From: Bernardetia sp.
Lineage (GTDB): Bacteria; Bacteroidota; Bacteroidia; Cytophagales; Bernardetiaceae
Reading direction: 5' to 3'
Length of the DNA: 64,000 bases
NCBI GenBank assembly: GCA_020630575.1
Contig: JAHDBD010000001.1
Location: forward strand, 186,001-250,000
In this document: in pieces, positions 42,211 to 44,324 of the stretch
Position numbering within the stretch: position 1 is the first letter of the stretch
How the letters are laid out: each line of letters starts with the position of its first letter
Made by a program: the position numbers and the translations under genes
The notes under the pieces: model-generated
What the model was told of the DNA's origin: nothing
Seen by the model: only the letters and a program-made list of their open reading frames with translations
Database searches by the model: none

Positions 42211-42416
42211 AGCTTGAAAACGATTACGAATTAAAAATTACGAATTACGAATTTCATATTAATTATGAATATTTAGAATTTAAAGTAATTTCGTTTACTA
42301 AAATTCTCTTACTTATTCAATTAATAAAATAGGCAAAATCGTGTAAAAACAGATAAAAAATAAATACAAAGGTCGCTAATTTTCTAGTCATTGTCAAAAT
42401 AAGAAAAGTAAGAAAA

Positions 42417-42452
42417 CAAAAAAACCATCTTTCAAAGAAAAATGGCTTTTTG
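42417..42452 (-). terminator. Possible minus-strand terminator hairpin
   Basis: On the minus strand AAAAGCCAT pairs with ATGGTTTTT (one bulge) and is followed by a T-run. No gene on that strand lies between it and the micropeptide terminator 190 bp upstream, so it may be a fallback terminator or the end of an unseen RNA. The rest of the 42211-42640 gap is A/T-rich with a few ATTACGAATT repeats near 42225-42258 and no ORF of note. Confidence 0.35.
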
Positions 42453-42642
42453 ATACGCTACTTTAAATTATAGACTAATTCATTTCCTATTTCAAAAACG
42501 AACAAGTTTTTTTTAAAATCTTGTACTGTAAAACAAGGTATTTATTTATTTTTTTCCTAAAAAAGCATATAGACAAAGTATAGACAGTCAGAAAAAAGGA
42601 ATTATTTTCAATTAAAAATATAACAATTAGAGTTTTTTATAT

Positions 42643-42677
42643 AAAAAAAGCTACAAAACGATTACTCATTTTGTAGC
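42643..42677 (-). terminator. Terminator of the micropeptide cassette
   Basis: On the minus strand GCTACAAAA/TTTTGTAGC forms a 9-bp perfect stem with a 10-nt loop, followed directly by T7. It lies 25 bp past the stop of the second micro-ORF. It is good independent evidence that this otherwise gene-poor stretch is transcribed leftward. Confidence 0.85.
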
Positions 42678-42701
42678 TCTTGTACGGCAGCTAAATAAGG
42701 T

Positions 42702-42791
42702 TTAGCTTGGACGATTCTCTAATTGGGGAATTAAAACTCCTTCGATAGAAATGTCATTACAGTCTCCTAAACAATGCACAACAGATTTCAT
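42702..42791 (-). CDS. Micropeptide B (29 aa) of a tandem pair
   Basis: A 29-codon ORF starting ATG AAA and ending TAA. The peptide is MKSVVHC, a variable stretch with a second Cys (C-x3-C), 'ISIEGV' and the conserved end LIPQLENRPS. The same end occurs in micropeptide A upstream. Between the two, all four codon differences in the last ten codons and the stop-codon change (TAA/TAG) are synonymous, which indicates selection on the peptide. The layout of variable N-terminus and fixed C-terminus, without a signal peptide, recalls small signalling peptides or RiPP precursors, but no modification enzyme apart from an upstream GNAT is nearby. The family is not known to me. Confidence 0.72.
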   Translation of the reverse strand: MKSVVHCLGDCNDISIEGVLIPQLENRPS

Positions 42792-42808
42792 ATGTATAAA
42801 TTTGAGTA

Positions 42809-42878
42809 ATCATAATAATTAGTATGATAAACTATATCTACTTGTTTTCAAAGTGAAGGGCTAGTAGAAAATTCCCTT
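42809..42878 (-). promoter_or_regulatory. Structured leader of micropeptide B (two hairpins)
   Basis: Going towards the ORF on the minus strand: hairpin 1 has a 5-bp AAGGG/CCCTT stem and a 13-nt loop (42856-42878). Hairpin 2 has a 6-bp ATCATA/TATGAT stem and an 8-nt loop (42809-42828). It ends 17 nt before the ATG, where a ribosome would load. The same two hairpins with identical stem and loop sizes precede micropeptide A. It probably controls translation or is bound by a protein; it is not a known riboswitch to me. Confidence 0.68.
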
Positions 42879-42888
42879 TTCATTTTGT

Positions 42889-42975
42889 CTAGCTAGGACG
42901 GTTTTCTAATTGAGGAATTAATATATCTTCTATATTAATTCCTTCACTAACATTAATAGGAAGTCTATTTTTCAT
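42889..42975 (-). CDS. Micropeptide A (28 aa) of a tandem pair
   Basis: A 28-codon ORF starting ATG AAA and ending TAG. The peptide begins MKNRLPINVSEG, then has 'INIEDI' and the conserved end LIPQLENRPS shared with micropeptide B. It has no Cys. It is the proximal unit of a tandem duplication of about 185 bp (leader plus ORF), and starts 102 bp after the GNAT stop on the same strand. No signal peptide or membrane segment is present. Candidate roles are a peptide signal, a RiPP precursor, a leader peptide or a small regulatory protein. These are inferences; expression is supported by the paired structure and the terminator. Confidence 0.72.
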   Translation of the reverse strand: MKNRLPINVSEGINIEDILIPQLENRPS

Positions 42976-42991
42976 AAAAAATTTTTAATTA

Positions 42992-43062
42992 ATCATAGTT
43001 TTGGGTATGATAAACCTCGCCTACGTATTTTCTGATGTGAAGGGTTGGCAGGAGATACCCTT
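42992..43062 (-). promoter_or_regulatory. Structured leader of micropeptide A (two hairpins)
   Basis: Hairpin 1 is AAGGG/CCCTT with a 13-nt loop (43040-43062). Hairpin 2 is ATCATA/TATGAT with an 8-nt loop (42992-43011). Hairpin 2 ends 16 nt before the ATG. Stem and loop lengths equal those of the leader of micropeptide B and the spacing between the hairpins differs by 1 nt, while the loop sequences differ. This argues for conserved structure. The leader starts about 15 bp after the GNAT stop codon, so it may be internal to one transcript. Confidence 0.68.
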
Positions 43063-43077
43063 GTAAAAAGATTTCAG

Positions 43078-43683
43078 TTATTTTAAAATATGTTTCTTTT
43101 GGGCTTTTTGTAATAATTCTTCTAAATGTTTACTGCCTTTTATCAAGGAATATAAACATTGGTCTTCATATTTAGTACCATCAAATATTCTATCTATTAA
43201 ATGTCCTTCTTTTTGAAAGCCAAACTTTTCTAAAATACCCACAGTAGCTATATTAGATGGAGATGTTTTCGCAGTTATAGAATGTAAATTAATGTTTTCG
43301 AATCCAAAGCGAATAACAGATAAAAATGTTTCTTGTCCAATATGTGTACGCCAGTATTTTGGATGAAGTTCGCCACTTATTTCTGCTCTGTGGTTTTGAA
43401 TATCTATGGCATTGTAGCTACATATTCCTAAAAATTCGTCAGTTTCTTTTACAGCACCTACCCACGTAATTCCCCATTTTTTTTCAAAAAACATTTTTCT
43501 ATGTGCTATGAATTTCAAAATATCTTCCTCTGTTTCTACTTTTCTATGAGAGAGAAACTCATTTACTTTAGTGTCTGACTGAAGTTCAAGAAGTTTTGGT
43601 ATATCAGTTTCTTTTATTTCTCTTAAAATAAGTCTTTCAGTTTCAATGTTTGGAAAACTATCAAATACTTTTTGATTTATCAT
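43078..43683 (-). CDS. GNAT family N-acetyltransferase (RimJ/RimL type)
   Basis: A 201-residue acetyltransferase. It begins with the RimJ/RimL-like 'IETERLILREIKETDIPKLLELQ' strand. The acetyl-CoA binding region is 'GELHPKYWRTHIGQETFLSVIRFGFENINLHSITAKTSPSNIATVGILEKFGFQKEGHLIDR', with 'NIATVGILEKFGF' as the hallmark of the family's CoA-side motif. RimJ/RimL proteins acetylate the N-termini of ribosomal proteins or other amines. It is directly upstream of the two micropeptide units on the same strand. It could tailor them, or be unrelated. A start at 43683 gives a normal length. Confidence 0.88.
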   Translation of the reverse strand: MINQKVFDSFPNIETERLILREIKETDIPKLLELQSDTKVNEFLSHRKVETEEDILKFIAHRKMFFEKKWGITWVGAVKETDEFLGICSYNAIDIQNHRAEISGELHPKYWRTHIGQETFLSVIRFGFENINLHSITAKTSPSNIATVGILEKFGFQKEGHLIDRIFDGTKYEDQCLYSLIKGSKHLEELLQKAQKKHILK

Positions 43684-43826
43684 GTTTCTAATTTAAGCAA
43701 AAAATGAGATAAACGTTTGTAAAAAACGCAATATAAAAAAAAATAATTTTGCACATAACATTCTATTCAATTTTTATTTTCAGACTAAAAAACTAAATTA
43801 TAGCTTACATATTAAATAACTAAATT

Positions 43827-44324
43827 TTATTTTTCAATCCTAAGTTTAGAGATTTTCGAAACAGGTCCTGGGCATTGTTGTTCATGACATTGCAGACAGC
43901 TTTTCACAAATAAGTTAAAACCTTCTACTTGCACGCTATGTTCTTTATTTTCAGAAGCATTTTGATATACGTTTTTCAATTTTTGAAGCATTATCTTTGC
44001 CATAGCATCAAAGGCTGTACTTTTTGTGTGTTCGTCTGTAGGTTCTGCTCCCAAAATATTTTCAAAACGAGGTAAATAATCGGGCAAATCTTTTGTATTT
44101 TTATTGATAATAGCTGTTTTAAGTGTATCAGCATATTCCCACATATCACGCATCAGAACAGCTAGTTCGCTACTAGGGTTAGGCGAACGAGGGTCATTAA
44201 TTAGTTTTTTACTATCCTCAGTTTTGATTGCTACTTGGTCTTTATCTATCTCTTTTTTATTTGTTTCTGACAAATTACAAGAGCAAAAACAGCAAATTAG
44301 TAGCACAAATAGTATCTTATTCAT
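43827..44324 (-). CDS. Mono-haem c-type cytochrome lipoprotein (class II-like)
   Basis: A 165-residue lipoprotein: signal MNKILFVLLICCFCSC, acylated Cys at about 16. The mature part is mostly helical ('SSELAVLMRDMWEYADTLKTAIINK ... DAMAKIMLQKLKNVYQNA') and ends with a haem-binding CLQCH motif at 143-147, then 'EQQCPGPVSKISKLRIEK'. A C-terminal CxxCH on a four-helix layout fits the cytochrome c'/c556 class. It would sit on the periplasmic side of a membrane. Partners are not in the neighbourhood. The function, whether electron transfer or gas sensing, is open. Confidence 0.78.
   Translation of the reverse strand: MNKILFVLLICCFCSCNLSETNKKEIDKDQVAIKTEDSKKLINDPRSPNPSSELAVLMRDMWEYADTLKTAIINKNTKDLPDYLPRFENILGAEPTDEHTKSTAFDAMAKIMLQKLKNVYQNASENKEHSVQVEGFNLFVKSCLQCHEQQCPGPVSKISKLRIEK

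What the first reader, a model, noticed from the sequence alone, without database searches (positions are those of the whole stretch)
42643..43077. Tandem micropeptide cassette: two 28-29 aa ORFs with a fixed C-terminus and duplicated structured leaders
Seen directly: two consecutive minus-strand ORFs (42889-42975 and 42702-42791) share the peptide end LIPQLENRPS. Over the last ten codons plus the stop there are five nucleotide changes and all are synonymous (Pro, Glu, Asn, Pro and TAG/TAA), a sign of selection on the peptide. The N-terminal halves have diverged in sequence and by one residue in length. Each ORF has a leader of about 100 nt, and a good terminator (42643-42677) closes the unit. 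A GNAT acetyltransferase ends 102 bp upstream on the same strand. Inference: an unrecognised family of small signalling peptides, RiPP precursors or leader peptides. I know of no family with this end.
Basis: partly seen in the sequence, partly recalled or inferred. Interest (0 to 1): 0.88.

Follow-up and report, generated by a model that had tools for sequence, protein, structure and literature searches.

The report
Tandem micropeptides with pseudoknot RNA leaders
Behind an acetyltransferase gene, a Bacteroidota bacterium and one relative carry a row of similar units, each a knotted RNA followed by a 27-29 residue peptide with a fixed end and a very variable front; this is a real, apparently undescribed gene module, probably making a set of small variable peptides whose job is not yet known.

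Summary
Two 28/29-aa minus-strand ORFs (42889-42975, 42702-42791) share LIPQLENRPS with five changes, all synonymous. A second genome of the same genus (G021) has seven more units in two arrays (4 and 3), each again directly behind a homologous GNAT (48-50% identical). Across nine units the C-terminal 11 codons show no second-position change, while codons ~5-13 are hypervariable, even where two leaders are identical over 90 nt. Each ORF is preceded by a 72-73-nt leader that folds as two successive H-type pseudoknots, with compensatory changes in three of four helices. No Rfam, Pfam, plasmid, phage, IMG/VR or GTDB-contig match was found; in the genomes sampled the module is confined to this genus and is cleanly absent from another genome of the same species. 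Best reading: a co-transcribed GNAT plus micropeptide array, RiPP-like in layout, in which the constant C-terminus is the recognition part, the variable N-terminal half is the product or specificity part, and each pseudoknot leader controls or insulates its own ORF. Transcription, acetylation and function are inferred, not shown. Leader-peptide and type I toxin readings are disfavoured.

The parts
43078..43683 (-). GNAT acetyltransferase (Acetyltransf_3, RimJ/RimL-like, 201 aa), first gene of the module
   Evidence: Pfam PF13302 E 6e-23; NCBIfam matches to PseH, RimL, RimJ far below cut-off; homologues stand directly before both arrays in G021
42990..43062 (-). leader RNA of unit 1: two consecutive H-type pseudoknots; starts 15 nt after the GNAT stop
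   Evidence: covariation counts, covariance-model match 87 bits (it is one of the model's own sequences)
42889..42975 (-). micropeptide 1, MKNRLPINVSEGINIEDILIPQLENRPS
42807..42878 (-). leader RNA of unit 2, same double-pseudoknot fold
42702..42791 (-). micropeptide 2, MKSVVHCLGDCNDISIEGVLIPQLENRPS
42690..42706 (-). small hairpin at and after the stop codon of unit 2 (comparable weak hairpins behind G021 units; none evident behind unit 1)
   Evidence: (z -1.1 here, -1.6 to -2.7 in G021 copies): weak
42643..42681 (-). intrinsic terminator closing the module
   Evidence: z -6.0
42568..42586 (-). TGTCTATACTTTGTCTATA box (11-bp-spaced direct repeat) downstream of the terminator; possible operator of a regulon that includes a G021 module
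42400..43845 (-). approximate extent of the stretch missing from another genome of the same species (G080)

Best explanation
A lineage-specific operon that is gained and lost: one GNAT acetyltransferase followed directly by a tandem array of micropeptide units and a terminator. Shown by sequence: the same layout at three loci, coding selection on the peptide C-terminus, a hypervariable N-terminal half, and a covarying double-pseudoknot leader before each ORF. Inferred: (1) GNAT and array are one transcript (leaders start 7-15 nt after the GNAT stop); (2) the constant end (I-N-I-E-D-I-L-x-PQLENRPS) is a docking or follower sequence recognised by the GNAT or by a common processing or binding partner; (3) the variable stretch behind M-K/R is the functional product or specificity part, so the array makes a small set of different peptides, possibly acetylated; (4) each pseudoknot leader, ending about 16-20 nt before its start codon, controls or insulates translation (or protects a processed 5' end) unit by unit. 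The likeliest roles of the peptides are signalling or interbacterial competition.
For: GNAT-array linkage at three loci in two species, in different genomic surroundings; no other enzyme class is shared by the neighbourhoods; gap from GNAT stop to leader 15, 13 and 7 nt. Nine ORFs all intact and in frame, zero second-position changes in the last 11 codons over all 36 pairs, while g1/g3 have a 90/90 identical leader but 21/34 in the variable stretch, and g2/g4 93% against 37%. The residue before PQLENRPS (I, F, M) is uniform within each array and so goes with its GNAT. Leader: 97.2% of cells paired, five pairs with compensatory changes, 0 of 500 shuffles and no slid register reach it (helix 4 alone).
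Against: No catalytic evidence; the AcCoA-loop glycine position is H, G or R in the three GNATs (position assigned by eye), so activity of the window copy is uncertain. The array-specific residue could come from gene conversion inside arrays rather than co-adaptation. No exporter, protease or signal sequence is linked. The single-chain AlphaFold trial (GNAT read through to peptide 1) failed, mean pLDDT 38, so docking is untested. Only two genomes carry the module.
Confidence: 0.4

Rival explanations
1. The peptides are not modified: the GNAT is an operon neighbour without action on them, and the micropeptides are intracellular adaptor or regulator peptides whose constant end binds one cellular protein and whose variable half confers specificity.
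For: Constant end under strong purifying selection, peptides hydrophilic and without membrane segment; GNAT motif A degenerate.
Against: The GNAT stands first at all three loci in two species, 7-15 nt from the first leader.
Confidence: 0.22
2. Peptide toxin with GNAT self-protection (by analogy with the RimI-like acetyltransferase domain of MccE in microcin C immunity; recalled, not tested).
For: Hypervariable peptide half, strain-variable presence, linked acetyltransferase.
Against: No adenylyltransferase, exporter or other microcin gene among the neighbours checked; several peptides per GNAT.
Confidence: 0.13
3. The RNA is the functional part: the leader is a riboswitch or other regulatory RNA and the ORF is a translated attenuator-type leader peptide.
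For: Double pseudoknot with covariation; pseudoknot riboswitches just upstream of small ORFs exist (downstream-peptide motif, glutamine-II, PMC6698751).
Against: No gene follows the array before the terminator; selection at the end of the ORF is on amino acids, all changes being in synonymous positions.
Confidence: 0.12
4. Type I toxin array (like the tandem Ldr or Ibs repeats of E. coli, recalled), the leader controlling toxin translation.
For: Tandem small ORFs with structured leaders.
Against: Peptides are hydrophilic and acidic, mean hydropathy -0.84 to +0.07 with no membrane segment; no antisense promoter-like site common to all units.
Confidence: 0.05

Closest known systems
RiPP precursor arrays (e.g. 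graspetide/microviridin clusters with a GNAT)
   Same: short precursors, often several per cluster, with one constant recognition segment and one variable segment; an N-acetyltransferase in microviridin clusters (own knowledge; review PMC7823629 came up but was not read in detail)
   Different: constant part is C-terminal; no ATP-grasp ligase, YcaO, radical SAM, lanthionine synthetase or exporter among the neighbours checked; a pseudoknot RNA before every ORF
Glutamine-II riboswitch (downstream-peptide motif, RF01704)
   Same: about 60-nt pseudoknot RNA close to the start of a small ORF (PMC6698751)
   Different: no match to it in Rfam even at E 10; two successive pseudoknots; tandem array behind a GNAT; Bacteroidota instead of cyanobacteria
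Type III toxin-antitoxin RNA repeats (ToxI)
   Same: tandem units each with an H-type pseudoknot next to one protein gene (recalled)
   Different: units are about 185-212 nt and contain a conserved ORF; the protein is a GNAT, not a ToxN/AbiQ nuclease; RNA units lie downstream of the gene
RimJ/RimL-type GNAT N-acetyltransferases
   Same: the first gene belongs to this superfamily
   Different: far below the equivalog cut-offs; AcCoA-loop glycine not conserved

Membership tests
RiPP precursor | short ribosomal peptide with a conserved recognition segment and a variable core | tested here: met
RiPP precursor | linked class-defining modifying enzyme | tested here: not met
   neighbours of the window locus and of L035 are housekeeping, TonB, FadL, 7TMR-DISM, HipA-like and GNAT genes; a GNAT is only ancillary in known classes
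RiPP precursor | modified peptide product | not testable with these tools
   needs mass spectrometry
riboswitch | conserved covarying fold in the 5' region of an ORF | tested here: met
riboswitch | membership of a described family | tested here: not met
   no Rfam match at gathering score and only unrelated chance matches at E<=10
riboswitch | ligand-dependent switching | not testable with these tools
   needs in-line probing
attenuator / leader peptide | regulated gene downstream in the same transcript | tested here: not met
   a terminator follows the last unit at all three loci
type I toxin | hydrophobic membrane peptide | tested here: not met
type I toxin | antisense RNA antitoxin | tested here: inconclusive
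   promoter-like + strand sites recur only in the three h units

The most novel reading that the evidence does not exclude
A new class of peptide system in which a single acetyltransferase serves a tandem array of micropeptides with a constant C-terminal address and a hypervariable N-terminal payload, each ORF gated by its own double-pseudoknot RNA of a new structural class, and diversified by duplication plus localized replacement of codons 5-13.
Probability: 0.25. Interest if true: 0.85.

Novelty: new variant of a known kind. Interest (0 to 1): 0.62.

Why it matters
It gives, in one short locus, a new micropeptide family with evidence of selection, a new covarying RNA fold, and a direct candidate enzyme. 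The natural experiment g1/g3 (identical leaders, unrelated peptide fronts) suggests strong diversification of the front half, as in signals and bacteriocins. Two genomes of one species with and without the module (G000, G080) make the function testable. ORFs of this length are normally skipped by annotation, so similar systems are likely to be overlooked.

Tried and rejected
Peptide HMM over 390 genomes of the order: the best outside hit (G055, E 7e-4) is an internal stretch (LLPQLEN...) of a 288-aa open frame, judged chance. Degenerate pattern with one mismatch over 291 genomes: exact matches only in the own genome and G021; the rest are scattered one-mismatch hits. GTDB-contig and IMG/VR pattern scans: hits lie in frames without a matching ORF or leader. 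A leader pattern in IMG/VR gave four contigs scoring only 16-22 bits with the model. Plasmid and phage BLAST: none. Weak covariance-model hits in G624 and G080 (E 0.06, 0.28) are treated as background. GNAT relatives in IMG/VR: none. AlphaFold of the GNAT read through to peptide 1 as one chain without alignment: pLDDT 38, discarded. Anti-phage defence library: nothing for the GNAT. The in-frame distance GNAT-peptide 1 (708 nt) is taken as chance, since it is not kept in G021.

Full report
What is there. On the minus strand the order is GNAT gene (43683-43078), leader 1 (43062-42990), ORF 1 (42975-42889), leader 2 (42878-42807), ORF 2 (42791-42702), terminator (about 42681-42643). The window has 31% G+C and lies on a 366-kb contig of an 84.5% complete genome.

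Relatives. A degenerate DNA pattern for the peptide end over 291 genomes of the order found exact matches only in the own genome (2) and in G021, a genome of the same genus (7). G021 (L035) has two arrays of 4 and 3 units, unit spacing 207-212 nt, the arrays about 3.2 kb apart. Each array stands directly behind a GNAT homologous to the window's (48 and 50% identity), 13 and 7 nt after its stop codon, and ends in a terminator. The nine peptides are: MKNRLPINVSEGINIEDILIPQLENRPS, MKSVVHCLGDCNDISIEGVLIPQLENRPS (window); MKNRMQPPSDIETINIEDILFPQLENRPS, MKSVRYVDDGQQNIVDILFPQLENRPS, MKNRMAGAETDIINIEDILFPQLENRPS, MRGGGQICDDTINIEDILFPQLENRPS (G021 array g); MRLPSGGADGTGIINIEDILMPQLENRPS, MKLPSGGADGTGIINIEDILMPQLENRPS, MRLPSGEADDTGVINIEDILMPQLENRPS (array h). 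Unit 1 begins MKNR and unit 2 begins MKSV both in the window and in array g, so the order of units is conserved.

Selection. In the last 11 codons there is no second-position difference in any of the 36 pairs, and the only amino-acid change is at the residue before PQLENRPS, which is I, F or M by array. In contrast codons about 5 to 13 are hypervariable: g1 and g3 share 90 of 90 leader nucleotides and 88% of the C-terminal 51 nt, but only 21 of 34 in the variable stretch; g2 and g4 share 93% of the leader and 10 of 27. All length changes keep the frame. So the C-terminus is constrained as protein, and the front half is either under diversifying selection or replaced in blocks while the flanks are homogenised by gene conversion. 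These two cannot be separated with nine units.

The leader RNA. The aligned 73-column leader has four helices: columns 1-5/19-23, 11-15/39-43, 47-49/57-59 and 52-56/67-71. The first two interleave and so do the last two, which makes two successive H-type pseudoknots. On eight distinct sequences 97.2% of cells pair, five base pairs have changes on both sides, no shuffle of 500 reaches this, and no register shifted by 1-3 columns comes near. Shuffles do not correct for relatedness, and only three loci are involved, so the number of independent changes is small. Helix 4 shows a two-pair compensatory switch in g2 and g4 (AUCAU/AUGAU to ACUAU/AUAGU); helix 1 has no compensatory pair and is the least supported. 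The leader's last helix ends 16-20 nt before the start codon. Rfam has no match. A covariance model built from the nine finds only these nine copies in 11 family genomes, and, of 395 class and 395 phylum genomes, only the window's own two at a convincing score (the large scans use stricter filters).

Distribution and mobility. In G080, classed as the same species and 96% complete, the flanking lipoprotein and EngB-type GTPase genes are adjacent with the whole 1.4-kb module missing. In G021 the same site holds a 7TMR-DISM/HTH regulator instead, and the modules lie elsewhere, next to paralogues of that regulator. No plasmid, phage or viral-contig match was found.

Regulation, tentative. An 11-bp-spaced direct repeat TGTCYAYAYTTTGTCYAYA lies about 130 nt upstream of one G021 GNAT gene, with a degenerate copy before the other, and about 85-190 nt before a few other genes: a beta-lactamase-fold lipoprotein, a TPR-CHAT-like gene and an EF-hand-like gene, the last two named by eye. 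Exact copies occur in the window's genome (3), in G021 (5) and in G121 (1), none in G080 or G037, and only one-mismatch singletons in G052, G107 and G066. The 7TMR-DISM/HTH regulator is found only in G021 and G121, so it is a candidate for the box-binding factor; the window's genome has boxes but no regulator was found, and it is incomplete. In the window the box lies after the terminator, not before the GNAT, so the link to this copy is weak.

Mechanism. I favour a RiPP-like or signal-peptide operon: constant end as address, variable front as payload, GNAT as modifying (or protecting) enzyme, pseudoknot leader as unit-wise control or insulation. The layout and the selection are shown; transcription, acetylation, export and target are inferred. 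The window GNAT has H where the AcCoA loop usually has G (G021: G and R), so its activity needs testing. Leader-peptide control is disfavoured since nothing follows before the terminator, and a type I toxin because the peptides are hydrophilic.

Verdict. A real, apparently undescribed micropeptide-plus-RNA module, restricted so far to one genus. RiPP membership is not claimed, because no class-defining enzyme is linked; 'works like a precursor array' remains the best reading.

Noticed in passing
window 42568-42586; L036 15263; L121 1827; L035 11517; L065 3329; L066 2493; L087 3207; L088 4050: Direct-repeat box TGTCYAYAYTTTGTCYAYA upstream of several accessory genes (beta-lactamase-fold lipoproteins, TPR-CHAT-like, EF-hand-like, GNAT array); its exact copies co-occur with a 7TMR-DISM/HTH regulator or the GNAT array among genus genomes.
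   Followed up: partly
L035 11732-13597 and 15375-17267; L065 1333-3132; L085 177-1958: Family of 7TMR-DISM receptors with a C-terminal HTH, in G021 and G121 only; in G021 one occupies the site that holds the GNAT array in the window.
   Followed up: partly
window 42646-42681; L035 9890-9940 and 13720-13760; L085 2783-2820: Similar terminator (loop GAGTAATCG or close) is reused behind unrelated genes in the genus; in G021 and G121 the similarity extends past the U tail.
   Followed up: no
window 42390-42590: The box after the module's terminator is followed within about 150 nt by a second terminator-like hairpin and no clear ORF; similar arrangement in G021 (L065 3329-3545). Could drive a small RNA or be a relic.
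   Followed up: no
L035 4492-6611: The G021 neighbourhood has a leucyl/phenylalanyl-tRNA protein transferase and a HipA-like kinase/DUF3037 pair 4-5 kb from the array; probably unrelated.
   Followed up: no
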